DNA of 64,000 nt from a virus. A model generated the notes under the pieces. It made no database searches. It was not told the origin of the DNA and saw only the letters and a list, made by a program, of their open reading frames with translations. Positions 3 to 48,192 of this stretch are shown here, one piece after another; positions within the stretch are counted from its first letter, which is position 1, and each line of letters begins with the position of its first letter. The stretch lies in the IMG/VR virus record IMGVR_UViG_3300031963_000027, positions 62,001 through 126,000 of that record, one strand, 5' to 3'. Both the position numbers and the translations under genes were made by a program.

Positions 3-1394
3 GAAGAGAAGTGTGATCTTATTAATGAGATATATACTGACAAGTATTATAATAGCTGCTGGCCTCTTCACTTATATGGTCATCTAACATTTGATAGACC
101 TGTTAAGACTAGATTTAGTATTGGTCTTGACACTGGTGTTGGTTATGGTGGTGTGTTAACTGGTTATAATGTTGCTACTAGAAAGTTTATTATTGTTCAA
201 TCTACCTTAGATAATAGTCTTAAACAACTTGATAATCTTACTAAGTTTAAGTATCCTGTACAAGACTTAGAAGTTAAGTTAGATGATGATGATACTAGAA
301 AGTTAAGTAGTTTTATCAGAAACAAGGTGCCTTATATCAGTGGAACTATGTGTCCTGCTGATAAGACTGAAACAACCTTAGAAGATATTAAAACTGTGTT
401 AGCCTACTATGCTTCTACTGGACAAACACAAGTGTTAATACAACCTAAATACATGGGTAGTAGAGCACAAGTATTATTAACTAGAAATAGTTATGAGGTG
501 TTTACTAGAAGTGGCTTTAAGTTAAAACATACACCTGAATTAGACACTGCTATACAAGCACTAGAAGATAATGTATCCAATGAGTTAATGACTTGGCTTA
601 ATAGTTTAGGGCCTTATACTTCAACATTATTAGATTGTGAGTTGATGCCTTGGTCTTATCTTGGTAAAGGTTTAATTGAGGATACATTTGAATCTTATTA
701 TTATAGTCATAAGTTACACATTGAAGCTATGATTAAACATGGTTTTTATACTGATTTAGAATCTTATAAGATTAGTGATGATTATGTTAATAAGGTGCCA
801 TCAGCAAACAAACAAGTTGGTAATCTTAATCAATGGAGAAACACTAGTAATCTAGATAATCTAAATATCTTTGGCACTGAACTAGATAAGTATGCCTCAA
901 CTGAAGCACCTTACTTTGTTCCTTTTAATATTCTTAAAGTTGAGTCTGAAGATAAAATTCTTTATAGTAATAGTGAGTTTAATAGATTTAATAACTTTGA
1001 GTTGTTAAGCTTATTACAAACACCATTACATGTGGTTGATGTTAATGATTTAACAGAAGGGATAAAAGTACAAAACTTATATAGTCACCTCGAAGGTATT
1101 GTTGTTAAACCTTACTACAATATTGAAGGCCAAGCACCATATATTAAAGTTAGAAACATAGATTATTTAAGATTAGTTTATGGTCATGACTATACTTCTA
1201 AGTTGGATAAGTTCATTGATAAGAAAAACATTAAAGGTAAACTTAGGGTGTCTATTAATGAATGGCAACTTGGTAATGCTTTATTAGATATGCATTCCTC
1301 TGAGTTTGTTGAATCTAATAAAGAGTATGTTAATACTTTAATTAGACTAATGTTTGAGTTGAAAAAAGAACAAGGACTAGATCCAAAATTATAA
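3..1394 (+). CDS. pnkp: Polynucleotide kinase-phosphatase-ligase (Pnkp), 3' part; start lies outside the window
   Basis: The frame is open to the left edge, so the GTG at 153 is internal. Codons from position 3 encode the end of a calcineurin-like phosphatase domain: LYGHLTF, then LDTGVGYGGVLTGYN, matching the Pnkp pattern IDTGCVFGG-LTA. A complete Pnkp-type adenylyltransferase follows. It has motif I PKYMGSRA with the nucleotidyl lysine at 447-449 (family form EKxMGSRA), LLDCELMPW (family DAELxPW), motif IV EGIVVKP, and IKVRNIDYLRLVYGHDY (family KVRGREYLRIIYGPDY). The C-terminal helical module has the family's spacing. Known Pnkp enzymes heal RNA 2',3'-cyclic phosphate and 5'-OH ends; their ligase is activated by Hen1, whose homologue lies about 570 bp downstream. 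The N-terminal kinase domain should lie to the left and is not visible. The stop overlaps an (AAT)6 run. Confidence 0.92.
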   Translation, partial: EEKCDLINEIYTDKYYNSCWPLHLYGHLTFDRPVKTRFSIGLDTGVGYGGVLTGYNVATRKFIIVQSTLDNSLKQLDNLTKFKYPVQDLEVKLDDDDTRKLSSFIRNKVPYISGTMCPADKTETTLEDIKTVLAYYASTGQTQVLIQPKYMGSRAQVLLTRNSYEVFTRSGFKLKHTPELDTAIQALEDNVSNELMTWLNSLGPYTSTLLDCELMPWSYLGKGLIEDTFESYYYSHKLHIEAMIKHGFYTDLESYKISDDYVNKVPSANKQVGNLNQWRNTSNLDNLNIFGTELDKYASTEAPYFVPFNILKVESEDKILYSNSEFNRFNNFELLSLLQTPLHVVDVNDLTEGIKVQNLYSHLEGIVVKPYYNIEGQAPYIKVRNIDYLRLVYGHDYTSKLDKFIDKKNIKGKLRVSINEWQLGNALLDMHSSEFVESNKEYVNTLIRLMFELKKEQGLDPKL

Positions 1395-1411
1395 ATAATA
1401 ATAATAATAAT
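1394..1411 (+). repeat. (AAT)6 trinucleotide repeat
   Basis: Six perfect AAT units begin at the last base of the Pnkp stop and end directly against a strong Shine-Dalgarno sequence. Such a repeat can change length by slippage and would alter only the spacing between Pnkp and the next start. It could also be a neutral AT-rich leader. Confidence 0.8.
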
Positions 1412-1418
1412 AAAGGAG
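1412..1418 (+). promoter_or_regulatory. Strong ribosome binding site ahead of an interrupted ORF
   Basis: AAAGGAG lies 10 bases before the ATG at 1429. Most genes in this arm have weak or no Shine-Dalgarno sequence, so this is one of the clearest initiation signals here. Oddly, it serves an ORF that meets a TAA after 13 codons. Confidence 0.65.
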
Positions 1419-1428
1419 AAATAACAAT

Positions 1429-1644
1429 ATGCCTTTCTGGAAAGCAAGAGTACTTGATCATGATGATTAAGGTAGAGAGTCTGAATCTGTATACTATGTA
1501 TCAGAACCAGATGAATTAGAAGCTTTACTTACTACATATGATGTTCATAGTATGAGTGATGATTTGCATGAAGGGACAGATGATGTTCCTAATGTTGATT
1601 TAAAAGAGATTAATGATGATACTGCTAGTAAATCAGGCGGCTAG
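1429..1644 (+). pseudogene. Small acidic ORF interrupted by an in-frame TAA
   Basis: The start is supported by AAAGGAG at 1412-1418. The frame reads MPFWKARVLDHDD, then TAA at 1468-1470, then continues protein-like for 57 codons (GRESESVYYVSEPDELEA... to ...DTASKSGG) before TAG at 1642-1644. Beyond the TAG the frame stays open for eight more codons. The second part is acidic and has the amino-acid and codon make-up of its neighbours, which suggests one ancestral reading frame of about 71 codons. One base change (for example GAA or CAA to TAA) would explain it. Options are a recent pseudogene, stop readthrough, or a sequence error. No family was recognised. It sits between Pnkp and Hen1. Confidence 0.55.
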
Positions 1645-1740
1645 ATTAGTAACTTCTTTGGTAGGCAATAAATAAACTATTACAAGTTAGTTGTAGCAAT
1701 ATAATTAACTTGTAATAGCTATAATAAGGTATTAATTAAT

Positions 1741-1969
1741 ATGTATTTAATTGTGGCTGGTTTAAGTGATTTAGATGATATTGATACTGCTAAGTATGCA
1801 GATATAAACACCAATAAAAAAGGCTTCTGTTGCTATTAGGTATGCTCAAATAATGACAAGTAGAACTGATGAAGGTACTTATGATAATGCTTTTGTTTAT
1901 GAGTTAAAGAGTAATAGTATTAAATTGTTATCAGCAAGTTATAGACGTAAAGAGAATGGTTTAATATGA
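1741..1969 (+). pseudogene. Small ORF split by a frameshift at an A6 run, coupled to Hen1
   Basis: From ATG 1741 the frame reads MYLIVAGLSDLDDIDTAKYA and stops at TAG 1837-1839. The neighbouring frame carries the evident continuation, KASVAIRYAQIMTSRTDEGT... to RRKENGLI, ending at TGA 1967-1969, which overlaps the Hen1 ATG (1966) as ATGA. The frames would join exactly if the A6 run at 1816-1821 had five As, giving ...DINTNKKASVAIRYAQ. The break may be a true mutation, a programmed +1 shift or slippage, or a homopolymer sequencing error. An internal ATG at 1853 could also start the second half. The intact stop-start coupling to Hen1 suggests the second half is or was translated. No family recognised. 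Confidence 0.6.
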
Positions 1970-3174
1970 TAATTGACGTTAATTCTAGCAACTTTAACAT
2001 GTCTTACATTCTTAATAAGAATCCTAGTAGTGGCTTGCTTATTAGAGATTGTAGAAAGGGTTTTGTAGTGGGTAAGTATGTTAATCCTTTAACATATATG
2101 GCTGTCTTTGAAGAAGGTACTGGACAGGATTCCTTTGAGAAAGAAGGTAATTATTTAGTTTATAGAGGTTATTGTTCTGCTGAAGCTGCTCTTACAGTAA
2201 TAACAGCATTGTTTGATTGTATTAAAAAAGATAGTAATAATAAGTATGAGGAAGGACCTTCTTTAAATACTATTACTATTAAATGTTTAGATATTGATGT
2301 TAAACATTTATCTATATTTAACACTGAAAGCTTTAACATTACAGAGTATACAATAGCTGATAATTGTAATTTAGTACAATTAAATGTTACTAATAATAGT
2401 AGTTTAATTGATGTTTTAAGGTATACAGCTTTAATTCTATTCATGCAACTTGTTAAGGATAATGTGAGTTATCTAACACTTGATCAAGTTAATGTTTATG
2501 CTAACATCATCAAAAAAAATGACAACATTCCTTTTATTGTTAGACATAGATTTAGAGGCATTCTTGAAGATAATATGTCTAAAAAAGTAGTACCTTTATT
2601 AAATAATGATTCAATTAAACTATCTAATATTGGCAGAAATGAACAACAAAGATTTGCATTTGTAAGTCAACACATTTTATTTAAAAATAGTGTTTTAGAT
2701 ATTGGTTGTGGTCCTGGAAAATATATTAAAGTGTCTAAAGCTGCAAAATATGTTGGTGTAGATATAGATGAAAAGTGTATTGAAAAAGCTAAAACTAAGG
2801 CTAGCCATTTGAATGTAGATGCTTCCTTTTATACTGATTGGGCATTTGCTTTAGAACAATTAACAGAGCCTACAACAGTCCTTTTAATAGAGTTTATTGA
2901 ACATATTGAAAAGGATGTAGCAATGCTTATATTAGAAAAACTTTGTTTATGTGAACAGGTTAAGCAAATACTTATTAGTACTCCTAATAAAGATTTTAAT
3001 AAGCACTTTAATATTGCAGATGATGGTCTTAGGTTTGAAGACCATATCTATGAAATGACAGAAGAGGAGTTTAAAAGACTTCCTGGAAAAGATATAACTT
3101 GGGGAGATTCAGTTGATGGATGTCCTATGACTTTGTATAAAGATTTAAGATTAGAGGTAAGTATTCTTGACTAG
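1966..3174 (+). CDS. hen1: Hen1-type 3'-terminal RNA ribose 2'-O-methyltransferase
   Basis: This 402-residue protein has both halves of bacterial Hen1. The N-terminal ~230 residues fit the Pnkp-activating domain: FNMSYILNKNPSS near the start, VGKYVNPLTYMA, and a segment ending NIPFIVRHRFRG (family form ELIVRRYL). The C-terminal methyltransferase has the SAM loop VLDIGCGPG (243-251), the Mn-binding cluster E309-F-I-E312-H313, ISTPNKDFN, and H360 in FEDHIYEMTEEEF, which are the family's four metal ligands. Known bacterial Hen1 methylates the 2'-OH of the 3' end at a broken RNA before Pnkp seals it, making the site resistant to the same ribotoxin. It overlaps the upstream split ORF by ATGA and the next gene by 8 bases. 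Confidence 0.9.
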   Translation: MIIDVNSSNFNMSYILNKNPSSGLLIRDCRKGFVVGKYVNPLTYMAVFEEGTGQDSFEKEGNYLVYRGYCSAEAALTVITALFDCIKKDSNNKYEEGPSLNTITIKCLDIDVKHLSIFNTESFNITEYTIADNCNLVQLNVTNNSSLIDVLRYTALILFMQLVKDNVSYLTLDQVNVYANIIKKNDNIPFIVRHRFRGILEDNMSKKVVPLLNNDSIKLSNIGRNEQQRFAFVSQHILFKNSVLDIGCGPGKYIKVSKAAKYVGVDIDEKCIEKAKTKASHLNVDASFYTDWAFALEQLTEPTTVLLIEFIEHIEKDVAMLILEKLCLCEQVKQILISTPNKDFNKHFNIADDGLRFEDHIYEMTEEEFKRLPGKDITWGDSVDGCPMTLYKDLRLEVSILD

Positions 3175-4339
3175 TTTATTAGCATATCAACAACCAGATG
3201 GCAGTATTGATTTTAGAAGTAATGCTGCTACTTGTCCTAAGGTAAAAGCCGGCGTTTATAGAGCTTTAAATTCTATGGACAGAGGAATTTATTTAAGTCC
3301 TACAACTGAATTTAAATATCTAGATGAATACTTTCTATTAGATGAATTTGAAGAGTTAGTCTTAGAAAGTTTTAAACAGTCTAATAAGAGTTTAGCTGTT
3401 ATATATCTTGGTCTTAAGGGTAGTGGAAAAACTAAAAGGGCGCATAAACTGGCCCTAGACTCAGGAATGCCAGTGCTAATTATTGATAACTTAGATATTA
3501 TTAATAGTCAACGTTGGAATGATATTGTTGGCAGTGATACATTAAATAACTGGATCATCTTTGTGGATGAGTATGAAAAGAAGTTAGACAATGATAATTC
3601 AGTTGCCTTCTTAAATTGGCTAGACGGGTCAGTTAGTACTAAGCAATTGTTTATATTGATTGGCAATGAACAAGCTAAGACTAAGTATAGTGATCCTCTT
3701 TTAGATAGACTCTCAAGGGTCTTATGGAAGAAAGAATTTGGCTCATTAACCAATGAGCATGTTGAAACATTAGTAAATAAACTCTCCAAGAGAGAAGAAA
3801 AGTCTGAGTTATTAGATCTGCTTAATAATATTCCTGTGTTGTCTATGGATAATACGATGCAGATTATTAGAATAACTAATATGTTTCCAGATAGGTCTAT
3901 TGAGTCTTTACTTACTAAACTAAATATTAGCTTTAATAGTGTTGAAGAGTTTACATTTGTAGATGAGTTTTATAAACCTTTAACATATGGTGAAGATCAT
4001 ATTGGACTAACTATTACTAGAAGTGGTCCTATACTTAATGTTGCAAGAATTATTAGATTCTATATAGAATCTGATGATATTATAGAAAGGTTTAACCCTG
4101 AAGATAGTGATAAAAAGATCTATAGAATAAAGGTTGAAGCTCCTGCAAAGACTATTAAACTTACTAAAGTTAGTAGATTTATATATAAATTTGAAGCTCC
4201 TTATAGTGTTTGTTATAATTATACAGAGTGGGATGAAGATGCGTGGCAGCCTTCTGACAAAACTATGACTGTATTCTTATATAAAACAATGGCCTGGAAT
4301 TTATTAGCTAATCCTAATAGTAATACTTACTATATGTAG
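3167..4339 (+). CDS. AAA+-like P-loop ATPase
   Basis: This 390-residue protein starts at TTG 3167, preceded by AGAGGT; the next in-frame ATG is about 37 codons later and would shorten it. Walker A is GLKGSGKTKRA (about residues 83-93) and Walker B is NWIIFVDEYEK. ILIGNEQAKTKYSDPLLDRL fits sensor 1 plus a downstream arginine region. This is an AAA+ layout with no recognised partner domain. The C-terminal ~150 residues, rich in aromatics, are unfamiliar. It overlaps the Hen1 stop by 8 bases, so the two are probably made together. A role in remodelling RNA or in the repair complex is only inferred from that. Confidence 0.75.
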   Translation: MTSLLAYQQPDGSIDFRSNAATCPKVKAGVYRALNSMDRGIYLSPTTEFKYLDEYFLLDEFEELVLESFKQSNKSLAVIYLGLKGSGKTKRAHKLALDSGMPVLIIDNLDIINSQRWNDIVGSDTLNNWIIFVDEYEKKLDNDNSVAFLNWLDGSVSTKQLFILIGNEQAKTKYSDPLLDRLSRVLWKKEFGSLTNEHVETLVNKLSKREEKSELLDLLNNIPVLSMDNTMQIIRITNMFPDRSIESLLTKLNISFNSVEEFTFVDEFYKPLTYGEDHIGLTITRSGPILNVARIIRFYIESDDIIERFNPEDSDKKIYRIKVEAPAKTIKLTKVSRFIYKFEAPYSVCYNYTEWDEDAWQPSDKTMTVFLYKTMAWNLLANPNSNTYYM

Positions 4340-4593: not shown

Positions 4594-4780
4594 CTTTTAT
4601 TATGATCAAGCTTATTGGGTGTATAAATATTTAAATAATAGAAATATACCTTATAAGCTTGATTGTAATATTCATCTTGATGATGGCTTTCAATTGTTTG
4701 TACCAGAAGAATTTTTGTACAAGATTAGAAATGATTTGTGGTATATTGAAAGGCGGTTAGTGGAGTTAAATGATGGTTAA
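4577..4780 (+). CDS. Hypothetical small protein
   Basis: A 67-residue protein, unrecognised. The frame is open upstream to 4517, but ATG 4577 (MLCVSSFYYDQAYWVY) is preferred because an earlier start would mean a long overlap with the upstream gene. It is rich in Tyr, Trp and Leu and ends with an amphipathic helix (LYKIRNDLWYIERRLVEL). It overlaps the upstream gene by 17 bases and the phosphoesterase start by 11 bases, so it lies inside one polycistronic unit. Confidence 0.5.
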   Translation: MLCVSSFYYDQAYWVYKYLNNRNIPYKLDCNIHLDDGFQLFVPEEFLYKIRNDLWYIERRLVELNDG

Positions 4781-5306
4781 GATATATGTAATTAGTGACA
4801 CTCACTTTGGTCATGAGAACAGTCTTAAGTGGCTTGATAGTGAGGGTAATAAGCTAAGACCTTTTGATACAGTTGAAGAGCTAAACAACACTATGATTAC
4901 TAATTGGAATAATACTGTTAAGCCAGAAGATCATGTGTATCATTTAGGAGATGTTGTTATTAAAAAGGAGTACTTAGAGTTAGTAAAACAACTTAATGGT
5001 CATAAGCGTCTGGTCAAAGGTAATCATGACCAACAGACCCTTAAAGAGTATATAGCTGTAGGTTTTCAAGAGATCTATGGAGTAAGAGTATTCCCTGGTT
5101 TAAAGTGTATTTTAAGTCATATACCAATACATCCAGAATGTCTAAAAGAAGACTGGATAAATGTATCGGGCCACCTTCATTCCAACAACCTTTCTGACAG
5201 AAGATATATTAATGTTAGTGTTGAGCAGATAAATTATACTCCTGTTTTGCTAGAAGATATATTAAAACAAAGAAGAAATGAAAATATCAATTCAAGAAGA
5301 AGTTGA
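4770..5306 (+). CDS. Calcineurin-like metallophosphoesterase
   Basis: A 178-residue protein with the full dimetal phosphoesterase set: DTHFGH at the N-terminus, GDVVI, KGNHD, HIPIH and GHLHS. The size and layout match the small phage and bacterial single-domain phosphoesterase family, whose substrates vary (phosphodiesters, nucleotides). ATG 4773 is an equally possible start; GGAG lies upstream of both. It overlaps the preceding gene by 11 bases and the following 36-codon gene by 29. Close to Pnkp-Hen1 it could process RNA ends or degrade a signalling nucleotide, but the sequence does not decide. Confidence 0.85.
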   Translation: MMVKIYVISDTHFGHENSLKWLDSEGNKLRPFDTVEELNNTMITNWNNTVKPEDHVYHLGDVVIKKEYLELVKQLNGHKRLVKGNHDQQTLKEYIAVGFQEIYGVRVFPGLKCILSHIPIHPECLKEDWINVSGHLHSNNLSDRRYINVSVEQINYTPVLLEDILKQRRNENINSRRS

Positions 5307-18802: not shown

Positions 18803-21800
18803 TTAGGTATTAATAATTCCATCAATAACTTTAGTTCCTCTCTTTATATTGAACTGTTGTAATGCAATTTGTTCACTATCTCTAGAACTTGTTTGTGTAA
18901 ATTCTAAGGTTGTTTGACCTTTATCTGTTTTTCCTTTAGTAACCTTTGTTGCTGCTTGAATGTTTGGTGTTCCATCATTTATAAGTTGAATGTGTGGATT
19001 AGGTACTATATGACTTCCAACTACATTTAATGCTAAGTTTTTCTTAGTATTAATCTCATTAACATCATTAGCCATTTGACCCATCTTAGTACTAACCTCT
19101 CCTAACTTAACAATTGCTTCTCTTGTTATAGCGTTTATCTCTGTTGATCCTATAATAGGAGCAGAGGTTATCTTTCTATTTTCAAGTTCTACAACTCTAT
19201 TGATCTGACCTTCCCATGCTTGTATTTGTAATCTTTCTGTAACAGACATATATTTAGATACTAATGCATGATTTAACTTGTCATCCATTCTTGTGTTCCA
19301 AAATTGTTTACCTGTTACTAGTTGATTATAAGCTTTACCTCTAATAGCAAATGCAAAGTCCTGAGATGGATCAACAGATCCTGGTCCATATCCTTCAGCA
19401 GTAGCAGCATATCCAGTCATAGGAGCATCAAAAGATGTAACAAATCTACCAGCAGTCTTTCTGCCAGTTGGATCATCTAAGGTGTCTATTTGTGCCATCC
19501 ATTCTTGTTTCATTGCATCATTTACTGTGCCTTGAAATAGAGGATTTCTATAGTCTTTATCCCTATACTTTGTATCATTATATATTTGATTGGCAGGTTT
19601 AAATAGATAAGATCCTGGCGCTCCAAACATCTGTGTTGGTAAGTTACTAAGATTAGATGCAAAGTCATCTGCTGTCTCAGGACTGTTAAGTATCCAAACA
19701 ATTTGTACTGCAGTTAATACTAAAGAAGCAACTAAACCCCAAGGTCCTGCTGCTACTCCAGAAATAGCTTTTAATCCAGCTCCTGCAAATTTTGCACCAG
19801 TTACTAATCCTTTAATTGCCATTCCTTGTGCTGTCTTTTGTATTGCAGCGTTTCTTATTGCTGTACTAGCACTCTGTATAAGACCTACCTTAGCAACTTG
19901 TTCTGTTATCTTAGAAGTGATAGTCTTTGCAACTATAGTTTGTCCAATCTTATTGGCTATAAATGGAGTTACTAATGTACTACTTAAAGAATCTAATGCC
20001 TGTAAACTAGCACCTTCTAATCTGTTATTCTTAGAGTCTAATGAGTGTCCTAAACCAACTCCAAATATTAAAGCACCAATAGCTGCAACTCCCGCATTAA
20101 TTAGATTGCCTGTCTTTAAGTAGTTAAGAGTTCCTCCAATACCTAAAGCTAAACCTCCAACAATGTTTATAACTCCACTTTGGTTTTGAATATTTCTTAT
20201 TACTTGTCTTCCTCCTTGATAAAAGTCATCCATCTTAGAAGTAATATATCCACCCAACTCAGGACTTAAAGAAGATAGGGATGATCCAGCTAAGTCAAAT
20301 ACACTTCTACCAGCTAAGGTTAAACCAGCTAATCCTATAGAAACTCCCCAAGTTTTACTTGCTTTGAATAATGCTATAGATGATGCAGCTAAAGTAATAC
20401 CTACAGCACCAGCAGTAATTCTTCCTCCAGTTCCATTATTCTTAAATAGTAAATCATAGCCAAAGAAACCAGCAGCTAGTCCTCCTATTCCAGGAATAAT
20501 ACTCTTCTGAATTGACTGATTCATTAATAATGTACCAAAGAATAAAGCCCCCCATATATTGTCAAAGCTTTCTTTGGCCATTTCTTCTCTGGCCATTTCT
20601 TTTTCTCTTTCTCCTGTTTTACTAGAAGCTACACTAGCTGCAGCTCTAAATGTTAATAAGTTAGTACTAACAAACATAGCCATTTGATAGCCATTCATTA
20701 GTACTGTTCCCATTCTAGATAAACCCTCTAGAAATGTTAAACCTGCAGTAGTCTGTAATGCTTTAGGTGGCACTCCTACTGGCATACTTCCCTGAAGTCC
20801 AGATCTAGTATTTTGTTTTATATCAAGTTCAATAGCTTTTGCAACTTCTTCTTGTAACTCTTTAGTGGGGACATTAAACATACCTCCACCATATTTTCTT
20901 ACATTGTCTAATACTTCTTTAGATGCATCTGTTGCTTCTAAAGTCATTCTGGTTATTAGATCTCTGTTAGTTCCTCCACTAACTATATTTAATAATCTAT
21001 CAAAGACAGCAGTTAAACCAGTTCTCTTTGTTGAAATGATTGTGGTTAATCTATCTTTAATCTGTTCTCTAAGATGTAACTTGTTATTAAATCTTTGATC
21101 TACTGATACTTTATTAACATAATCTTCATCAATTATTGCTGTGCTGTTTAACTCCCTTCTAACAGAATTAGTATAAATATTGTCTGCATCTTGTATAAAA
21201 GCTGCTTTAATTCTTTCATCAATAACATCATAGTAACTATCAATAACAATATCAAATTTGGCAGCATATACTTCTGTCATAAGATCAATAGAATGTCTCA
21301 TATTAGGGCTTCTATCTTTGCCAAATATATTGAAACCTCCTCCAAATTTTCCTGCCGCTTTAGATATGAATTTATCAGCTTTAGCTTCTAATAAATCATC
21401 ATAAGTAAAGCCTTTATAATATTTATCTACAAAGTCTGCTTTAGCTATAGGAGTTTTAGATTCAGCATTATAAGCATCATATTGACCCTCTAAATAAGCA
21501 TCAAGAACTTGCTTATTAGTATAATCATCTAATAAGTGTTCTGTTATTTTATGTGTTGTATGATTATAAGTTATAGTTTCATCTAGGGTTTCTGAGAACA
21601 TTACAGATTTAAATTCTCTAGCATGAGTTCTAGCTATTCTGTCATCTCTAGTAGATAATCTAGTTGTTTGACTTGGTGCTGATCTAGTTTCTAACTCATC
21701 ATAAAAGTCATTTAATCTTGTTATTTGTTGAGTGTGTGCTTGTCCATAGTTCTTTGAATAGTCTCTATAAGCACTATCAAACTTCATAGATAAAGCTCCA

Positions 21801-24800
21801 CTTAATTCATTGATTTGACTTGTATATTTCTTAGCTTGATGATCTGTTAAGCCTTCAGCTATTGCAAATACAACTTGTGTTCTTCTTAGTAATAAGAATT
21901 TACCTGCCGCCGCTTTTAATTCTTCTGCTTCATATAAATGTTTAGAGAACCACTTTCCTTCATCAAAGTACTTATGTTGTTGTTCCCATAATAATGTATT
22001 GTCTTTTGTTACTTGACCTTGACTGGCTTTAGTGGCAGCAACAACTGATATAGCAGCAGTAACTAAACCAAGAGAACCTATTCCAACTGCCATTATAGGC
22101 AGCCACATAAATGGTGGAAGAGCTTGAGTTAATCCTTGCAATGAAGATGTGTCTCTAACTTTTGTTAGAAATTCTCCAGCTCTTTCAAAGAAGCTTTTAT
22201 TTGAATCATATTGATTTGCTGTTGATTGAATTGCAATTCCTTGCATCTCCATAAAAGCATTTTCATTATCACTGTCTTGTATAGACATTTTAGCTGCTAT
22301 AAAAGGATTAGAGTTAGATGCTAAACCACCTATTTGTTTTACAGTTATTTCACCTCCCATAAAGAAATTTTGATTTATCTCTCCTAATCCAGTCTGACTT
22401 CCATTGCTTGATATATCTTTTAATGCTTTATAGAACTTACCTTGCATATCTGGTGAAGCTATGTTCATATTATTCATTAAGGTATATAAAGCTATGTTTA
22501 CATTAGTACCATAAGATAATGCTTGTAGTCTCTTATATCTTTGGTTGAGAGACATTGCTAAAGCTTTATTAGTAGTCATAGCTTCTAATGTATATTTATT
22601 AGGAGATGTAAACTTAATTCTATCTTTACCTGATCTTGTTGGTTGGCTATATACAGCAGTAATAATGTTAGAAGCAAACTGTCTTAGTTGTGCTTGATTG
22701 TGTCCAGCAGCATCATCAATTCCTCTTAAATTAGCAATAATATTCTGTGCTAAGAAACCTTTCTTAGCTAATTCTTGTAGTCCAAATACAGATGACATAC
22801 TATACATTGCAGATGAGAAATCTTGTGATGCTGATTGTATTTGGAAATAGTCTCTAAGTCTTACATCACTATCATCTGGTCTTATTGTTATACCACCAAC
22901 AGCCACACCAATAAAGGTATTTGGTGAATTTACAATTATTAAATTACTCAATTGTTTTAGTGAGTTGTTTATTGCTCCTTTAGTTGTACTGTCTGGATTT
23001 ATTAAGAATTCACCTTTACTATTATGTAAATTAGGTCCTACTAAACCTTTAGCAATGTCATAAGAATGGGCTCTATCATACTTTGTTTGTAGTTTAACAA
23101 AGTCTACTACACCTTTTCTAAAGTTTGCCCAAGGTGTGTTGCTGTCTTCATCTGCTCCTATTAAAGCATCTTGAAAGTCCTTATAACCCATGCCTTGAGA
23201 TGCCCAATTTAAGCCATGAAATGTTAGTCCAAGTAAGGCTGTAGTTCCGCCTAATCTAGCCCATCTTTCTATATGAACTCTATTACTAGCAGATCTATTT
23301 ATACTCATTCCTTTTAACACTGCTGAGGCTGGTTGATTGTTAGCAGGATTACTAAACTTATCTAACTCAGCTAATACTGCTGAAGCTTGGTTATTCTTTA
23401 TAATTGAGTTTAAGTCTGTACCAGCACTTATATCTAAGGACTGTAAACCTTTATAGACATTATTAGATCTATTACTTGTTATTTGTTTAATGTTTGAATA
23501 TGGATCACTTACATTAAAAGCATTTTTGAATATCTTTCCTTGTGCATCTTCTACTGCTTGAATAATAGGAGAGTTGCCCATTCCTTCTTCTATTATTATT
23601 TGTACTTCTCTTGCTTCCATGTTTAACTTATATGTTTCATACTTTAAGCTTAGAGATTGTATAAAGCCAATATTCTTCTTTCCTATTGGCACTTGTTGTA
23701 GTCTTTCTACAACAGTTAATCTATTCCTAAATCTCTCAACAATTTGTTCAGGATTAATATCTGCAAAGATTAAACTCTTAGGATTAAAGGATGTAACTCC
23801 TGCTGTTAATGCGAATAAGGTTGCACCAAAAGCAACAGTTGTCATTCTTCTTGTATTGTCATATTTATCTTCTGTTTGTTTTGTTAAATCTCCAAATGCT
23901 ATTTCTGGATTTACTTTGCCTGATGTTGGATCTGTTATAAAATGATTCCACAAAGCTCCAACAGCTAGTAAGCCTAATCCTTTTCCTACTTTATTTTCTA
24001 ATGTTCCTGTTTGGAATACAGCACTTTGTTTTACAAAGCCTCCAAACTTGCCTAATGTATTTCTATATAAACCTTTAAGACTGTTATTAGAATACATCCA
24101 AGCAACTAAAGGATCTATCTTTGTTTTGTCAAATCTTGCACTTGTAATATTTAATTCTGACTCTAACATTGCTAGTCTTCTAGAGGCTGCTATTGTACCT
24201 TTAGCATAACTAATACCTCCTATAAGAGCAGCTCCTGCCATAATAGAAGCACCTCTTAAAGCAAAGTTTCCATCTTTATCTTCTTTCTTATTTGTAAAAG
24301 GTTGAGATAATGTATTAATAACACTATATAAGTGATTACCAATAGCACCTCCCATAAAGGCACTAAATACAACAGGCACAAATGATGTTGATCTTAATCT
24401 TAAGCCTGGCATCCTAAAGTCACCAGTTGTTAGATTAAGAGACTGAGCAGCTATATAGAAAGGCAATGTAGCAATCCCTAAGAACTTATCTCTGGCAGCC
24501 CTTGTTGATTGTGTTATTAAAGATTCAGTGGCAACAACAGTTCCAGTTGATTTAAGTATTTGATGGTTTCTTCCCCATATTCTATTCCTTACTAAGGTGT
24601 TAGATACTCCTATACCAACTCCACTCCATAAGGCTACTTGGCTATAGATGTTATAATAATCTTGTAAGCTTAAGGAGTCCTTATTCCCTTCATTAAGTAT
24701 TAGACCAGTTCCTAGATAACCAGTTTTAATGGTTACATTATCAGCACTCTTAGCATTCATTGCAAATGCAATTGGAAAGCTTACATTAATAGGTGCTACT

Positions 24801-27800
24801 CCAACAGCAGGAGGTCCTTGTAAACCTAAGTTAACAGTTGTATAACTACTACCATTACTATCTACTACCTTTTTAATTACACTGTAATATTGAAATATAG
24901 GCAGAGGAGATTGTGTAGCAGTTACATATGCAGTGCTACCTTTTTGAGATGATGTAATTGGATTAATAATCTTACCTAAAGCTACTGCTAATAAGGCAGC
25001 ATTAACTTCAAGTGGTGATATAGAATCACTAATAGAAGCTGAACCACCATCTGAGGTTCTAGCTTGATCTATTCTTTTATTAACATGTTCTACATAACTT
25101 CCAAGTCTAGCTATAGCTGTTTGATTTGTTTCATCTAGTTTTGGCCCATTTATATCACCTTGGAAAGGGCTTAGTCTGTTCCAATAAGCTATTCCTAATC
25201 CTATAAGACTAATTGCTGTAGTTGTAATAGGATTTCTACCAAATAGGTTAGCCGCTCCTTGTAATCCTTTTAGTAATGTATTACCTAACATACTTGTAAC
25301 TTTGTAGTTACTATATCCAAGTTTACTACCACTAACCATATGTAATGAGTGAGCCATATTATCTATAGTTGTAGTAACACCAAATGCTATGGCAGGAGCA
25401 GCTAAAAATGCAGTAGATAAAACAGCAGAACCCATTAAGTTTCTTTCATTGTTAATGGTAGAACTAATCACATATCTAGCAGTTTGCATTGCTGCTAAGG
25501 TTAAGCCTAAACTAATAGAGAAAGATGTCCAGTTCTTTGCAACTTTAGCATTAAGAGCACTTAGTCCTGTTATATTTCCATTTTCCCTTACAACATTAAA
25601 ACTTAATTCTTTACCACTAATTAATTTAACTGTAACTGCATTTTTACCAGCAGACAAAGTTGTAAGTTCAGCCATAGTTGCAGACTGAACAGCTTGACCA
25701 TTTACTTCTGCTATATTATCTAATAAAGCTTGTCCAGTAAACATCTTTCCATGTATTTCAGGTGTGCTAGTAGATGCATGATCATACGCCCATCTAACTA
25801 TTCCAGCCATTGTAACTAAACTTTGAGTACCTAATACAAAGTTAGCAACATGATCATTAGCACCAGCCATCTTTACTAATTCAGCAGCAGAGAAGAAGTT
25901 AGTGCTTTGTAATTCAATTGATGTGTTAGTTGTTCCTCTATTTAGTTGTATTTGAGCTAAGGTAGATGTTAGTAAGGAGGCTCCAGTTGATTGAGCAAAC
26001 TCTGTTAATACTAATTGAGGTATGAATAAAGCACCAATAATCCACTTAGCAGCAGCTAATTTAGTACTAGATATCTTCATACCTACATAACTATTTCCCT
26101 TGTCTAAATGGTTTAATAAGAAACCAACACCACCTGAGCTGTGTGTTTTATTAGCATAAGTATATAAAGCATCGTCTAAAGTTATAGTTCTAAGGCCTAC
26201 TCTTTTGCTTGATAAAGCTTTCCATTTAGCCTGATATGTTGCTTCATTGTCTAATAATTCTTCCACTGATACCGCATCTAATGCATTAGTATTAAACACA
26301 TCAAAACCTCTAGCAGATCTATTCTTTGCAGAATCTATAGAGTTATTTGTTCTTACTTTTACATTATCTTCTAAGTTTATTTCTGCTTGTGAGTATGTTT
26401 TACTAATCTTACTAATGTCTTCTAAGTCTCTTTTAGATTGGCCACCTCTAGTATTAAAAGATAATATAGATCTGGTCATTGTTGCTATATGATTCATTAT
26501 TCTGAAGGCAGGATAGGAGGCTTTAGTACCATTCTCACTGAACAACATAAACTCATTAGCTGCGCCCCAAAAACCTTGATTGTTTAATGATGCATTAACA
26601 TATCTGGCAAAACCTTCAATGTCTAATAAGTTACCAATCATAGGAGCTGTTACATTGTCTTTTCTGCCAGCAAATATTCCCCATGCCCAAGGCATAGGGA
26701 CTAAGTTGATTACTCCTTGTATCTTCTTAGCAAGCATCATGTTTCTTTCTATAGAAACATTGGTTATCTTTAATTCATATTGTTTGTTAACTGCATCATT
26801 AATCTCCTTAACAACATCAGATGTTGGTTTGATAGTTGCATCATTACCTCTAAGAATATCTATGGCTCTGGGTATATTAAAAGTTTTACCAGAAGCTGTT
26901 GTTATGTTTACTGTGTTCCAATCAATTGATTTGGCTCCACTAGTTATAACTTCTCCAGCTCTATCAATAATCTTTATGTCAGCAGGTGATTGTAATACTT
27001 CTAGGTAATCATTAGTAGCAGAAATTAAGGCTTTAGATTTATTAGAGCCTAATGTATATGGATTAATCTTACTTATTAAGAATTCTCTTGCAGTTGCTGA
27101 GAAGAAGAAACCACCTCTTTGTCTTTGATAGTTATCTAAATAATAAAGAGAGAATGTAGGATTATCTAATGAATAGTAAGCAGTTGTTGCACCCTTAACT
27201 TGTCTTTCAATGACAGACATTTTAAAGCCAATATTATCATTGTCTGTTCCTCCTAATGCCCACTTAGCAGCTTTATTTGTATCAGCAGCTTTAATAAGAG
27301 CCTCTTGACTATTAAGTAAAGCTCTAGAAGCCATTGCTTTAAGTGGCTCTCCAACTGCTAGATAAACTCCAATAGAGGAGGCGGTAGCCAATACAGTAGC
27401 AGCACTATTTGCAAGTAAATCTTGAAAGAAACTTGTCTTAGTTGTAAAGTAATTTTCTCCATCATCTTTGTAGCTTCTTAGTACTGGATTATTAGTTAAA
27501 TATGATTGATCAATGAGCGCACCAACTGCACTAAATAGAGAAGGAATTGGTCCTCTTTCTTCTTGTAATACTCTACCCATACCATTAGGTATAAAGAAGA
27601 ATTCATTTATTCTACTCATTAATGATGGTGAATTGACAGCAAAATCAAATGCTTTAGCTACTGCTACTTCATCTCTTGATAAGTTATTATTAGTCTTACT
27701 AGCTCTAAGTATGCCTTCATATGTTCCCATATCTTCAGCATCAACAACAGATGTAAACCTACCTGATGCTCTCATAGAAGCATTATATCTAGCTAATTCA

Positions 27801-29089
27801 AATTGTTGTGAATGAGTTTTCTTATTACTAATAACTAAACCTCTATATTCCTTATCAGTGTCATATAAAGGAGCTAATAAAGGATTGTGTATACCCTTAG
27901 CTCTAGCATTAATAACAGCCTTACTCTCAAAACTACTGTTTATATCATCTAAGTTTACATGTAATAATCCTTTACCATCTTTAGGCGCATCATATACATT
28001 TTGTAATATTTGTTCTTCTACTTCTGGATCTAGATGAGGAAATAACCTTTTCATTCCTGTTAGTTCTCTAATCTGTCTACCATCTGCAAGTTTATAATCC
28101 TTCCAATTATCTTTTACATTTTGACTGTTAGGCATTATAACAGCAATAGTTTTTGTGTCTTTTGTTATTGTTGTTTGTCCTGGCTCTAATACAACGGCTA
28201 CCTTCCATAAAACTTTAGGTACTTCTACTCCATTAATACTCTCAACATAACCATTCTTACCAATACCTCCTTTACCAGCACCACCTGTTATAATTTGAAT
28301 CTCTCTTTCGGTATAACCAAATAAAGGAATGCCAAAAGGTCCTTTACCTTCATGTACTTTATTGTTTAAATAGTGTTCTAAATCTGCCCAAGGACCTGCA
28401 TTAACTTCATGTGCTTGTGCTAACATGTTAGTCATTACATATGTAGAAGAGTTAATTCCTACAGTACTTGTAAATGCAGCAGAGTTAGCCAAGTGACCTC
28501 TATCAAATCCTTTAAATCCTGTAAAGTCAACCTTCTTAAAGTTAGACGGTAGATTTGTATCATTTCTAAAATCATTCTGTCTACTAACATTACCTAAGTT
28601 ATTTTTTGTCAGTTTAAAAGCAACCCAATTAGGCCTGCCTTTTTCATTGTTGTAACTAGTAACAAATTGAGATCTGCCTTCTACTTTATTTTCTAATATG
28701 TAGTTATTACTGTCAGATGTATTAGCTCCCGTTGGATTGCCAATAAGTGATAGATTAGAATTGTTTTTATAGTTATAGCTGTCATTGCCAATATAACTTT
28801 GTTCTACTATTCTTTTATTTGTCTCTACATGTACATCTAAACCAGTTAGATCAAAAGAATAACCAACCTTAGGAGCATTTCCATAGCCTCTTAGATAATC
28901 ATTGTATCTACTTTTATTATCACTAAATGCAGAGAAGTTTCCTACTCTATCCTCAAATAACTTTCCTTTATATTGCCAATCCCAATTACCTTTGTTATAA
29001 GATGATGTTGCATCCTTAATAGCAAATGAGCCATAACCTAAAGTTGTGGCTCCTATTCCAGTGGCAATTGCAATATTAAGTAAACTCAT
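18803..29089 (-). CDS. Giant 3428-residue protein: N-terminal DNA/RNA non-specific nuclease plus many hydrophobic segments
   Basis: The N-terminus (about 95-335) is a complete DNA/RNA non-specific endonuclease domain: GFDRGHLANSAAF with the DRGH catalytic His at ~199, TNMLAQ, and N230 in VNAGPWADLE, the metal-binding Asn. The remaining ~3000 residues are helical and hold more than twenty hydrophobic stretches, for example PPFMWLPIMAVGIGSLGLV, GIGGLAAGFFGYDLLF and WGLVASLVLTAVQIVWIL, separated by polar, often coiled segments. No conventional tape measure lies between tube and hub, so this may be the tape measure; at about 0.15 nm per residue that would mean a tail near 510 nm. The alternative is an ejected pilot or channel protein that delivers a nuclease. 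It lies right after TerL and a 275-residue gene. Confidence 0.8.
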   Translation of the reverse strand: MSLLNIAIATGIGATTLGYGSFAIKDATSSYNKGNWDWQYKGKLFEDRVGNFSAFSDNKSRYNDYLRGYGNAPKVGYSFDLTGLDVHVETNKRIVEQSYIGNDSYNYKNNSNLSLIGNPTGANTSDSNNYILENKVEGRSQFVTSYNNEKGRPNWVAFKLTKNNLGNVSRQNDFRNDTNLPSNFKKVDFTGFKGFDRGHLANSAAFTSTVGINSSTYVMTNMLAQAHEVNAGPWADLEHYLNNKVHEGKGPFGIPLFGYTEREIQIITGGAGKGGIGKNGYVESINGVEVPKVLWKVAVVLEPGQTTITKDTKTIAVIMPNSQNVKDNWKDYKLADGRQIRELTGMKRLFPHLDPEVEEQILQNVYDAPKDGKGLLHVNLDDINSSFESKAVINARAKGIHNPLLAPLYDTDKEYRGLVISNKKTHSQQFELARYNASMRASGRFTSVVDAEDMGTYEGILRASKTNNNLSRDEVAVAKAFDFAVNSPSLMSRINEFFFIPNGMGRVLQEERGPIPSLFSAVGALIDQSYLTNNPVLRSYKDDGENYFTTKTSFFQDLLANSAATVLATASSIGVYLAVGEPLKAMASRALLNSQEALIKAADTNKAAKWALGGTDNDNIGFKMSVIERQVKGATTAYYSLDNPTFSLYYLDNYQRQRGGFFFSATAREFLISKINPYTLGSNKSKALISATNDYLEVLQSPADIKIIDRAGEVITSGAKSIDWNTVNITTASGKTFNIPRAIDILRGNDATIKPTSDVVKEINDAVNKQYELKITNVSIERNMMLAKKIQGVINLVPMPWAWGIFAGRKDNVTAPMIGNLLDIEGFARYVNASLNNQGFWGAANEFMLFSENGTKASYPAFRIMNHIATMTRSILSFNTRGGQSKRDLEDISKISKTYSQAEINLEDNVKVRTNNSIDSAKNRSARGFDVFNTNALDAVSVEELLDNEATYQAKWKALSSKRVGLRTITLDDALYTYANKTHSSGGVGFLLNHLDKGNSYVGMKISSTKLAAAKWIIGALFIPQLVLTEFAQSTGASLLTSTLAQIQLNRGTTNTSIELQSTNFFSAAELVKMAGANDHVANFVLGTQSLVTMAGIVRWAYDHASTSTPEIHGKMFTGQALLDNIAEVNGQAVQSATMAELTTLSAGKNAVTVKLISGKELSFNVVRENGNITGLSALNAKVAKNWTSFSISLGLTLAAMQTARYVISSTINNERNLMGSAVLSTAFLAAPAIAFGVTTTIDNMAHSLHMVSGSKLGYSNYKVTSMLGNTLLKGLQGAANLFGRNPITTTAISLIGLGIAYWNRLSPFQGDINGPKLDETNQTAIARLGSYVEHVNKRIDQARTSDGGSASISDSISPLEVNAALLAVALGKIINPITSSQKGSTAYVTATQSPLPIFQYYSVIKKVVDSNGSSYTTVNLGLQGPPAVGVAPINVSFPIAFAMNAKSADNVTIKTGYLGTGLILNEGNKDSLSLQDYYNIYSQVALWSGVGIGVSNTLVRNRIWGRNHQILKSTGTVVATESLITQSTRAARDKFLGIATLPFYIAAQSLNLTTGDFRMPGLRLRSTSFVPVVFSAFMGGAIGNHLYSVINTLSQPFTNKKEDKDGNFALRGASIMAGAALIGGISYAKGTIAASRRLAMLESELNITSARFDKTKIDPLVAWMYSNNSLKGLYRNTLGKFGGFVKQSAVFQTGTLENKVGKGLGLLAVGALWNHFITDPTSGKVNPEIAFGDLTKQTEDKYDNTRRMTTVAFGATLFALTAGVTSFNPKSLIFADINPEQIVERFRNRLTVVERLQQVPIGKKNIGFIQSLSLKYETYKLNMEAREVQIIIEEGMGNSPIIQAVEDAQGKIFKNAFNVSDPYSNIKQITSNRSNNVYKGLQSLDISAGTDLNSIIKNNQASAVLAELDKFSNPANNQPASAVLKGMSINRSASNRVHIERWARLGGTTALLGLTFHGLNWASQGMGYKDFQDALIGADEDSNTPWANFRKGVVDFVKLQTKYDRAHSYDIAKGLVGPNLHNSKGEFLINPDSTTKGAINNSLKQLSNLIIVNSPNTFIGVAVGGITIRPDDSDVRLRDYFQIQSASQDFSSAMYSMSSVFGLQELAKKGFLAQNIIANLRGIDDAAGHNQAQLRQFASNIITAVYSQPTRSGKDRIKFTSPNKYTLEAMTTNKALAMSLNQRYKRLQALSYGTNVNIALYTLMNNMNIASPDMQGKFYKALKDISSNGSQTGLGEINQNFFMGGEITVKQIGGLASNSNPFIAAKMSIQDSDNENAFMEMQGIAIQSTANQYDSNKSFFERAGEFLTKVRDTSSLQGLTQALPPFMWLPIMAVGIGSLGLVTAAISVVAATKASQGQVTKDNTLLWEQQHKYFDEGKWFSKHLYEAEELKAAAGKFLLLRRTQVVFAIAEGLTDHQAKKYTSQINELSGALSMKFDSAYRDYSKNYGQAHTQQITRLNDFYDELETRSAPSQTTRLSTRDDRIARTHAREFKSVMFSETLDETITYNHTTHKITEHLLDDYTNKQVLDAYLEGQYDAYNAESKTPIAKADFVDKYYKGFTYDDLLEAKADKFISKAAGKFGGGFNIFGKDRSPNMRHSIDLMTEVYAAKFDIVIDSYYDVIDERIKAAFIQDADNIYTNSVRRELNSTAIIDEDYVNKVSVDQRFNNKLHLREQIKDRLTTIISTKRTGLTAVFDRLLNIVSGGTNRDLITRMTLEATDASKEVLDNVRKYGGGMFNVPTKELQEEVAKAIELDIKQNTRSGLQGSMPVGVPPKALQTTAGLTFLEGLSRMGTVLMNGYQMAMFVSTNLLTFRAAASVASSKTGEREKEMAREEMAKESFDNIWGALFFGTLLMNQSIQKSIIPGIGGLAAGFFGYDLLFKNNGTGGRITAGAVGITLAASSIALFKASKTWGVSIGLAGLTLAGRSVFDLAGSSLSSLSPELGGYITSKMDDFYQGGRQVIRNIQNQSGVINIVGGLALGIGGTLNYLKTGNLINAGVAAIGALIFGVGLGHSLDSKNNRLEGASLQALDSLSSTLVTPFIANKIGQTIVAKTITSKITEQVAKVGLIQSASTAIRNAAIQKTAQGMAIKGLVTGAKFAGAGLKAISGVAAGPWGLVASLVLTAVQIVWILNSPETADDFASNLSNLPTQMFGAPGSYLFKPANQIYNDTKYRDKDYRNPLFQGTVNDAMKQEWMAQIDTLDDPTGRKTAGRFVTSFDAPMTGYAATAEGYGPGSVDPSQDFAFAIRGKAYNQLVTGKQFWNTRMDDKLNHALVSKYMSVTERLQIQAWEGQINRVVELENRKITSAPIIGSTEINAITREAIVKLGEVSTKMGQMANDVNEINTKKNLALNVVGSHIVPNPHIQLINDGTPNIQAATKVTKGKTDKGQTTLEFTQTSSRDSEQIALQQFNIKRGTKVIDGIINT

Positions 29090-32115: not shown

Positions 32116-32123
32116 GTTGTTTT

Positions 32124-32828
32124 TTATATTGTAATAAATAAATCTAATTCATTTTTTATAGTAGATATAGAATTCCCTGTTAGTTTTGCTGCTTGTGCTT
32201 TTGTATAATTAGTAGGACAAACTAATAAGAAGTAATCATTTACAACTTTAGTTCTAGTGTTACTTGTATTAAATTGTACGGGTCCTAATGCTGTTCTTAT
32301 AAATAGGTAAAATGCAAAAGTAGGCTGTATTACTTCAATTACTCCAGCTTCAATTTCAATCAATGAAGATGGCTCAACAGGTTCAGATGTATAACTATAG
32401 TAAATTGATTGTTGCGTTGTATTGTTTATATTTATAGTACTTTTTTGAGGAGTATTTATAAATATCTGTTCCTCTATAAAAGGAGTTGTTACAGCATTCT
32501 TAGACACAAACAACATATAAGTAGATACTTCATTCTTCAAATATGCTATAAATGTTCCATATTTAAAAAGGGATTCAGTAGCAGTAAATATATCTGGAGT
32601 ATTATTAGTTGCTAATACATTGCCGCATAAATCAAACACTTTGTAAGGCCCGTAGAACCCTTCAATTGAAGGTGAAAGAGGATTAACATAGTATGTTTTA
32701 TTGGGGTATGTACAGAAGGTAAATCTATCTTGCTCAGATAATACTGTCCAATTAAAATCTATATCTTGTATTACCTCAGATACTTCTGTATATGTATTAA
32801 ATGATTGCTTAACTATTTCTCTAGCCAT
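32124..32828 (-). CDS. Hypothetical structural-type protein
   Basis: A 234-residue, beta-rich protein with many Thr, Asn and Tyr (TYYVNPLSPSIEGFYGPYKV, SVSKNAVTTPFIEE-like text) and no membrane segment. Unrecognised. It shares one base with the upstream gene (TAATG) and lies 9 bases before TerL. With the two small genes upstream it probably forms a set of tail or connector parts. Confidence 0.45.
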   Translation of the reverse strand: MAREIVKQSFNTYTEVSEVIQDIDFNWTVLSEQDRFTFCTYPNKTYYVNPLSPSIEGFYGPYKVFDLCGNVLATNNTPDIFTATESLFKYGTFIAYLKNEVSTYMLFVSKNAVTTPFIEEQIFINTPQKSTININNTTQQSIYYSYTSEPVEPSSLIEIEAGVIEVIQPTFAFYLFIRTALGPVQFNTSNTRTKVVNDYFLLVCPTNYTKAQAAKLTGNSISTIKNELDLFITI

Positions 32829-33292
32829 TAGCCACTTCCAAGTTTTATATTAAATGTATAATCTAATGTTGCTGGTGGATTTAGTGTAATTGGTGTATTA
32901 GAAATTGGCTTTACAAGTAATGGTATGCCTTGTACATTTCCTCTGTTGTTAAAGTTTATTTCTGTTGCTCCTGTTACTAAAGCTTTATATACATAACATA
33001 TATGTGTTGCATTAACTATTGCTGTTGTGAATGATACTGGTGCTTCTATTGTTGCAAATATTTGATCTCCAATTGTTTCTTCTACTAATAAAAGGGGTGG
33101 GAATATAAATCTTTTATATGTTCCTGTTAGTTCATACTTGACTATATCTTCCATTTTTATTGCATCTAATGCTTGAAGCTGAGATAGGTTTGGTGTGGTT
33201 CCTCCATATATAGGTGCATTAATAAGTATAGCAACTGCATCAGTTGTTACTTGAGTTATAATGTCTTTTCTTGATTCTAATGTATATCTCAT
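32828..33292 (-). CDS. Hypothetical structural-type protein
   Basis: A 154-residue protein. YTLESRKDIITQVTTDAVAI is a helix; the rest is beta-rich with Thr and Asn (PISNTPITLNPPATLDYTFN). Unrecognised. It has one-base coupling to the next gene and lies in the chain of small proteins before TerL. Confidence 0.45.
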   Translation of the reverse strand: MRYTLESRKDIITQVTTDAVAILINAPIYGGTTPNLSQLQALDAIKMEDIVKYELTGTYKRFIFPPLLLVEETIGDQIFATIEAPVSFTTAIVNATHICYVYKALVTGATEINFNNRGNVQGIPLLVKPISNTPITLNPPATLDYTFNIKLGSG

Positions 33293-33293
33293 G

Positions 33294-33719
33294 TTAGTCC
33301 GTTGTTAATAATAAGTTTGCATCATCTAAATTAGTTAGTTTTATACCTATATATTGATTAGTTAAATCTGTTTCTAATATTAAATTAGAGGACTTAGTTG
33401 GTGTTTTAAATGTAGGTGTTGGAGGATATATTGATTGAAATAATATATCTGTATTAAATTGTTTATATATAAATAGTATAGTATTGGTTGGAGTATAACT
33501 AACTCCATAATATCTCCCTTCATAGTTTGGATCTTCATATGTATATCCTGAATAACAAGGATCTTGTACTACTGGTAATGTAATTGGATACAAGTTATAT
33601 AAAGTTGGCGGGCGGTAAGAAAGCCAACTAGTATTAAAATAATAGAACTGTTTAAAGTCCTCAGAAATAAATCCAGAATATTCAACATCATTATCTATTT
33701 GATTATTATAAAAATTCAT
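33294..33719 (-). CDS. Hypothetical structural-type protein
   Basis: A 141-residue protein rich in Tyr, Pro and Asn (WLSYRPPTLYNLYPITLPVV, DPCYSGYTYEDPNYEGRYYG). Such aromatic and proline-rich text is common in exposed tail parts. It overlaps the upstream gene by 14 bases. Unrecognised. Confidence 0.45.
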   Translation of the reverse strand: MNFYNNQIDNDVEYSGFISEDFKQFYYFNTSWLSYRPPTLYNLYPITLPVVQDPCYSGYTYEDPNYEGRYYGVSYTPTNTILFIYKQFNTDILFQSIYPPTPTFKTPTKSSNLILETDLTNQYIGIKLTNLDDANLLLTTD

Positions 33720-41420: not shown

Positions 41421-41421
41421 T

Positions 41422-44619: not shown

Positions 44620-44623
44620 TTAT

Positions 44624-48183: not shown

Positions 48184-48192
48184 TTGCTGCCT

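What the first reader, a model, noticed from the sequence alone, without database searches (positions are those of the whole stretch)
3..3174. A phage-encoded Pnkp-Hen1 RNA repair pair
Sequence: a Pnkp ligase and phosphatase C-terminus (PKYMGSRA, DCELMPW, EGIVVKP, YLRLVYGHDY) and, 572 bp later on the same strand, a full Hen1 with its N-terminal Pnkp-activating domain and all four metal ligands (E309, E312, H313, H360). Established: bacterial Pnkp-Hen1 repairs ribotoxin-cut RNA and adds a 2'-O-methyl so the site cannot be cut again; T4 uses a simpler Pnkp-Rnl1 pair to undo PrrC tRNA cleavage. Inference: the phage uses it to immunise tRNAs against host anticodon nucleases. I know of no characterised phage Pnkp-Hen1.
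Basis: partly seen in the sequence, partly recalled or inferred. Interest (0 to 1): 0.93.

Follow-up and report, generated by a model that had tools for sequence, protein, structure and literature searches.

The report
Phage RNA-repair pair with 2'-O-methyl seal
A large freshwater phage carries a complete toolkit that can re-join RNA cut by bacterial toxins and chemically mark the mended site; it is a rarely noticed third form of the known Pnkp-Hen1 repair systems, and its kinase gene is split by a probable self-splicing intron exactly inside the ATP-binding motif.

Summary
The window starts inside a gene for a kinase-phosphatase-ligase (KPL) protein; Hen1 follows 571 bp later. Outside the window the gene is complete once a 1,313-bp insert is removed. 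This insert, a LAGLIDADG-bearing group I-like intron, lies exactly in the Walker A codons (GPSNCG|KS). The rejoined protein has 803 aa with every catalytic motif kept.

It is not the textbook Pnkp. It scores 156 bits against NCBI's Pnkp model (cut-off 750). Its ligase and Hen1 are nearest to Capnocytophaga Rnl and Hen1 (PDB 4xrp/4xru). Its fused layout and metallophosphoesterase phosphatase follow classical Pnkp. It is therefore a third form, intermediate between the two characterised Hen1 systems.

It is not unique. I found the same fused form in about a dozen IMG/VR contigs and in Bacillota chromosomes (Listeria, Paenibacillus, Brevibacillus, Enterococcus). Other layouts occur in five isolated phages, including XacN1, whose 2018 paper already names PNKP and Hen1.

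Most likely it heals, 2'-O-methylates and seals RNA cut by host ribotoxins. The chemistry is well supported by homology; the tRNA target and the counter-defence role are inference. New variant of a known kind.

The parts
3..1394 (+). 3' part of the kinase-phosphatase-ligase (KPL) gene, inside exon 2. The rest lies left of the window: exon 1 at record 59670-59741, intron 59742-61054, exon 2 61055-63394 (window = record 62001-126000). Rejoined protein 803 aa.
300..1391 (+). Rnl-class RNA ligase domain; nucleotidyl-lysine motif KYMGSR at 447-464
   Evidence: PF16542 5.3e-26; 4xru_B 8.7e-45 against CthPnkp 9.4e-15; Foldseek 4xru_B TM 0.77
3..260 (+). C-terminal part of the metallophosphoesterase (MPE) phosphatase domain (approximate end); contains the GHLTFDR motif; the other motifs lie left of the window
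   Evidence: PF00149 1.4e-11 and 4j6o 1.2e-8 on the rejoined protein
1395..1965 (+). Spacer with two small ORFs, each with one lesion (an in-frame TAA; a frame change at an A-run); not part of the repair system as far as known
   Evidence: spacer identical in the second contig L008
1966..3174 (+). Hen1: N-terminal ligase-activating domain (1966-2553) and 2'-O-methyltransferase domain (about 2680-3080)
   Evidence: PF22032 1.9e-27; 4xrp_C 6e-21; AF2 pLDDT 86, Foldseek 4xrp_F E 3.8e-26, TM 0.78
2890..2904 (+). Codons of metal ligands E309 (2890-2892), E312 (2899-2901), H313 (2902-2904)
   Evidence: invariant in 18-21 homologues
3043..3045 (+). Codon of metal ligand H360
   Evidence: invariant in 18-21 homologues

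Best explanation
The phage encodes a two-protein RNA-repair complex. KPL removes the 2',3'-cyclic/3'-phosphate (metallophosphoesterase domain) and phosphorylates the 5'-OH (kinase domain) of RNA broken by a ribotoxin. Hen1 binds and activates the ligase domain through its N-terminal domain and puts a 2'-O-methyl on the healed 3' end; the ligase then seals, leaving a junction that a 2'-OH-dependent nuclease cannot cut again. Active KPL is made only after a group I intron has spliced out of the Walker A codons. In vivo this most likely lets the phage keep tRNAs (host's and its own) usable when the cell responds to infection by cleaving RNA. Shown: gene content, domain classes, catalytic motifs, fold matches, evolutionary class. 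Inferred: complex formation, activities, splicing, substrate, counter-defence role.
For: Every domain needed is present with its motifs: Walker A GPSNCGKS, MPE motifs GDVHGC/GDWID/GNHE/HAPC, ligase KYMGSR/ELMPW/EGIVVK/KVRN, Hen1 E309/E312/H313/H360. Structure matches: KPL to 4xru Rnl, CthPnkp phosphatase 4j6o and CthPnkp kinase 4jt2/4gp6; Hen1 to CgiHen1 over the whole chain. The homologous C. gingivalis complex repairs ribotoxin-cut tRNA only when all three proteins are present, and 2'-O-methylated product resists colicin D (PMC4411300). Hen1 adjoins or lies near the ligase gene in most related phage and Bacillota loci. The phage has 8 tRNA genes by Rfam, and 13 of 15 viral records with the system carry tRNA genes (no control).
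Against: No expression, splicing or activity data. No ribotoxin or anticodon nuclease of the host is known; the host itself is only inferred (relatives of Microcystis and Microcoleus phages). PADLOC holds no model for it, and no search for host nucleases was possible. The tRNA co-occurrence is weak, because large phages often carry tRNA genes.
Confidence: 0.68

Rival explanations
1. The pair is a working RNA-repair complex but serves general maintenance (repairing RNA broken by stress or by the phage's own nucleases), not a counter to host ribotoxins.
For: Wang et al. argue the bacterial complexes look like generic repair systems with unknown in vivo substrates (PMC4411300). The system is chromosomal in some Bacillota and Bacteroidota, where it need not be a phage counter-defence.
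Against: 2'-O-methyl marking makes most sense against recurrent site-specific cleavage. Phage occurrences are scattered over unrelated large phages, as expected for accessory conflict genes (inference).
Confidence: 0.2
2. The KPL gene is inactivated: the insert is not an intron, and only a Walker A-less kinase plus phosphatase and ligase is made from an internal start, or nothing.
For: Rfam finds no group I intron even at permissive thresholds. An in-frame TTG start lies next to the junction. Small ORFs in the spacer carry lesions.
Against: The 779 codons of exon 2 are intact. Exactly one of 1,107 U/G junction pairs restores an in-frame Walker A. A related insert interrupts DNA polymerase III alpha in L117 with a similar 3' end and the same junction rules. 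The core shares 73% over 136 nt with L118, which carries recognisable group I elements.
Confidence: 0.1
3. The pair protects the infected host from ribotoxins released by competing bacteria or phages during a long infection or pseudolysogeny.
For: The C. gingivalis authors assume that bacterial homologues meet ribotoxins released by nearby species (PMC4411300).
Against: Nothing here points to a long-lived infection: no lysogeny genes were seen (none were specifically sought), and the tail genes resemble those of contractile cyanophages.
Confidence: 0.05

Closest known systems
Pnkp1-Rnl-Hen1 heterohexamer of Capnocytophaga gingivalis (PDB 4xrp/4xru; PMC4411300)
   Same: Ligase (E 8e-45) and full-length Hen1 (E 6e-21; Foldseek TM 0.78) are the closest characterised relatives; same Hen1_N family PF22032.
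   Different: In the phage all end-healing and sealing domains are one chain; the phosphatase is a metallophosphoesterase, not a HAD; the kinase profile is nearest to CthPnkp.
Classical bacterial Pnkp-Hen1 (Clostridium thermocellum, Anabaena variabilis; TIGR04075/TIGR04074)
   Same: Kinase-MPE-ligase order in one chain, adjacent Hen1, kinase and phosphatase folds (4jt2, 4j6o).
   Different: 156 against a 750-bit cut-off for Pnkp, 54 against 340 for Hen1; ligase on the other side of a 100/100 branch.
K-MPE-L + Hen1 operons of Bacillota (Listeria rustica, Paenibacillus, Brevibacillus, Enterococcus)
   Same: Same fused architecture and same ligase and Hen1 class; also fail TIGR04075 (188 bits).
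   Different: Hen1 lies upstream and the genes nearly abut; no comparable intron seen; about 30% identity to the phage.
Xanthomonas phage XacN1 ORF197-199; Stenotrophomonas phages RAS14 and CM1; Vibrio phages RYC and sm033
   Same: Phage-encoded Rnl-class ligase next to Hen1; XacN1 authors named PNKP and Hen1.
   Different: None has the fused K-MPE-L: RYC and sm033 have a Hen1-kinase-HAD fusion plus separate ligase; XacN1 has a separate kinase, and no HAD_PNKP domain was found in its record.
T4 Pnkp + Rnl1
   Same: Same general task of mending nuclease-cut tRNA.
   Different: From established knowledge, the T4 pair has no Hen1 and a HAD phosphatase.

Membership tests
Classical Pnkp-Hen1 | kinase, MPE phosphatase and ligase in one chain | tested here: met
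   (after removing the intron)
Classical Pnkp-Hen1 | passes NCBIfam equivalog cut-offs TIGR04075 (750) and TIGR04074 (340) | tested here: not met
   KPL 156 bits; Hen1 54 bits; a classical Planctomycete Pnkp 1423 bits
Classical Pnkp-Hen1 | ligase groups with classical Pnkp ligases | tested here: not met
   100/100 branch separates them
Classical Pnkp-Hen1 | heterotetramer, Hen1-dependent ligation | not testable with these tools
   no multimer prediction or bench work
Pnkp1-Rnl-Hen1 | Rnl-class ligase and PF22032-type Hen1 | tested here: met
Pnkp1-Rnl-Hen1 | separate Rnl and T4-like Pnkp1 with HAD phosphatase | tested here: not met
   single chain with PF00149 phosphatase
Hen1 2'-O-methyltransferase | E-x-x-E-H plus distal H metal ligands | tested here: met
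   E309, E312, H313, H360 invariant
Group I intron | 5' exon ends in U, intron ends in G, exons rejoin in frame | tested here: met
   same rule in the related insert of L117
Group I intron | match to the Rfam covariance model | tested here: not met
   no match; the related inserts in L117 and L118 also give none, so the test appears insensitive here
Group I intron | conserved core elements P, Q, R, S | tested here: inconclusive
   73% identity over 136 nt to L118, which shows GGTTCAACGACTATCC...GATATAGTC; P7 of the window read by eye only
Group I intron | self-splicing | not testable with these tools
   needs RNA work

The most novel reading that the evidence does not exclude
Fused kinase-MPE-Rnl plus Hen1 is the ancestral layout of all bacterial Hen1 repair systems and has been kept and diversified mainly in large phages. 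The structurally solved Capnocytophaga heterohexamer, with its unexplained HAD phosphatase, and the unnamed Bacillota operons would be separate offshoots of phage systems, the HAD half being a later replacement of kinase-MPE.
Probability: 0.33. Interest if true: 0.75.

Novelty: new variant of a known kind. Interest (0 to 1): 0.6.

Why it matters
It shows that phages carry repair that not only undoes RNA cleavage but could also make the repaired RNA resistant, one step beyond T4's Pnkp-Rnl1. The fused K-MPE-Rnl form links two characterised systems whose different phosphatases were unexplained, and it flags a family in Bacillota and phages that public models do not name. A probable intron sitting on the kinase's ATP-binding codons makes repair activity depend on RNA splicing, a directly testable point.

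Tried and rejected
Classical Pnkp-Hen1 label: rejected by NCBIfam scores and tree. Phage-only invention: rejected, same architecture in Bacillota. 'First phage Pnkp-Hen1': rejected. Two independent HAD replacements: the free tree suggested two, but one HAD clade is not rejected (p-AU 0.56), so not claimed. One single bacterial clade is rejected (p-AU 8e-48). Rfam proof of the intron: none found. Exact place of the window protein in the trees: unresolved, long branch of 2.2 (ligase) and 3.5 (Hen1). Defence annotation with PADLOC: only weak methyltransferase matches. Single-sequence scans of IMG/VR gave only a near-identical contig. Literature: no held paper combines Hen1, Paenibacillus and RNA repair; Burroughs and Aravind 2016 (NAR), which from memory surveys RNA-repair operons and may anticipate part of this, is not held.

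Full report
WHAT IS THERE. The window opens inside a plus-strand gene whose visible part (3-1394) encodes the end of a metallophosphoesterase domain and a complete PNKP_ligase domain; Hen1 follows at 1966-3174. The window is bases 62001-126000 of a 128,561-bp virus record. Reading left in that record, the open frame continues to residue 'KSFISKELELQ', just short of a Walker A motif. The missing start, MTKPFSIVCEDYTVYMMVGPSNCG, lies 1,313 bp further left in another frame. Joining record 59670-59741 to 61055-63394 gives an 803-aa kinase-phosphatase-ligase with GPSNCGKS restored.

THE INSERT. The 1,313 bp hold a 318-aa LAGLIDADG endonuclease gene (PF14528 1.4e-14) followed by a 283-nt tail. Of 1,107 possible pairs of a U-ending 5' site and a G-ending 3' site near the junction, exactly one gives an in-frame Walker A. 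A homologous insert in viral contig L117 (35% identical endonuclease) interrupts a gene that, rejoined by the same rule, is DNA polymerase III alpha (DNA_pol3_alpha 5.5e-22, finger domain 1e-15); the two inserts share their 3' ends (GATAAAAAGCCTnTAGGnTAACA...TTG). The tail matches another contig, L118, at 72.8% over 136 nt (E 2.8e-10), and L118 carries recognisable group I elements (read by eye). The 5'-exon and guide trios GGU:GCC (window) and GCU:GGC (L117) covary (read by eye). Rfam recognises none of the three. I conclude group I intron, likely but not proven.

WHICH FAMILY. phmmer places the ligase with CgiRnl (8.7e-45) far ahead of CthPnkp (9.4e-15). A profile of eleven phage KPL proteins gives Rnl 2.4e-78, CthPnkp ligase 1.8e-38, CthPnkp phosphatase 5.9e-23 and CthPnkp kinase 3.3e-14. 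An AlphaFold2 model of exon 2 (pLDDT 74.6) matches Rnl 4xru (TM 0.77), CthPnkp phosphatase 4j6o and CthPnkp kinase 4jt2/4gp6. Hen1 (pLDDT 86, pTM 0.82) matches CgiHen1 over its whole length and classical Hen1 only by halves. NCBI's equivalog models reject both proteins. So it works like Pnkp-Hen1 but is not a member of the classical family.

WHO ELSE HAS IT. Isolated phages with an Rnl-class ligase beside Hen1: Vibrio RYC and sm033, Stenotrophomonas RAS14 and CM1, Xanthomonas XacN1. In RYC and sm033 Hen1 is fused to kinase and HAD phosphatase. XacN1's authors noted PNKP and Hen1 as tRNA repair (PMC5852040). Borg elements carry a putative Pnkp1-Rnl-Hen1 (PMC11208441). Among IMG/VR contigs the fused K-MPE-L form with Hen1 is the commonest (L014-L016, L020-L022, L026, L029, L032; L017 with Hen1 elsewhere in its record; L019 without Hen1 in the short piece held). 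A Hen1 followed by the same fused protein is chromosomal in Listeria, Paenibacillus, Brevibacillus, Enterococcus and others, and on a few plasmids annotated 'AAA family ATPase' or 'metallophosphoesterase'. The marker domain PF22032 occurs in 2 of 300 Bacillota and 4 of 297 Bacteroidota genomes (each count includes the centre genome) and not in a genome with a classical Pnkp.

TREES. In the ligase tree classical Pnkp and the Rnl class are split at 100/100. Within the Rnl class Capnocytophaga joins viral L031 and L033 (100/100), and Bacillota join viral L016, L026, L029 and L030 (90/96). One bacterial clade is rejected (p-AU 8e-48), so genes moved between phages and bacteria more than once; direction is not shown. 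Since the outgroup and most of the Rnl class are fused with MPE, fused K-MPE-L is the simpler ancestor and HAD a later replacement; one replacement is enough (p-AU 0.56). The window proteins sit on long branches and cannot be placed.

HOW IT LIKELY WORKS. By homology: phosphatase and kinase heal the ends, Hen1 activates the ligase and methylates the 3' ribose, the ligase seals. In C. gingivalis all proteins are needed to mend a ribotoxin-cut tRNA and methylated product resists colicin D (PMC4411300). For a phage whose nearest relatives infect freshwater cyanobacteria (sheath, terminase and tail protein 25-41% identical to Microcystis and Microcoleus phages) the likely use is to keep translation going when the host cuts RNA. 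This step is inference.

LIMITS. No expression, splicing, activity or host data. The near-identical contig (L007/L008; 2 mismatches in 13,171 bp) gives no test of selection.

Noticed in passing
parent record 59742-61054 (left of window); L117 2077-3377: Related LAGLIDADG-bearing introns sit on the Walker A codons of KPL in this phage and within DNA polymerase III alpha in another viral contig; Rfam misses both.
   Followed up: partly
L030 8116-9511 and L023 4390-5730: Two other viral KPL genes are also interrupted, by a reverse-strand LAGLIDADG gene (L030, phosphatase domain) and by a TnpB-like gene (L023, ligase domain): the gene is a repeated target of mobile elements.
   Followed up: partly
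window 1395-1965: Two small ORFs each carry one lesion (in-frame TAA; frame change at AATAAAAAAGG), identical in a second contig; decay, frameshifting or recoding not resolved.
   Followed up: partly
window 3167-4339: AAA ATPase gene (phrog_2376, 4.5e-30) starting 8 bases before the end of Hen1, which suggests translational coupling.
   Followed up: no
window 4770-5306: A second, separate metallophosphoesterase (phrog_547, 8e-52) shortly downstream of the repair pair.
   Followed up: no
parent record 30001-50000 (L003): Eight tRNA genes by Rfam (Trp, Pro, Gln, Gly, Ser and three that ARAGORN missed), scattered upstream of the repair genes.
   Followed up: no
parent record 52895-54112 (L002 2896-4113): A phage-encoded DNA photolyase homologue (PF03441 1.5e-11).
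   Followed up: no
Bacillota loci L036-L105: Chromosomal Hen1 + K-MPE-L operons that NCBIfam does not name (about 188 of the 750 bits required).
   Followed up: partly
window 18803-29089 (-): A 3,428-aa ORF, by far the longest in the window; not analysed.
   Followed up: no
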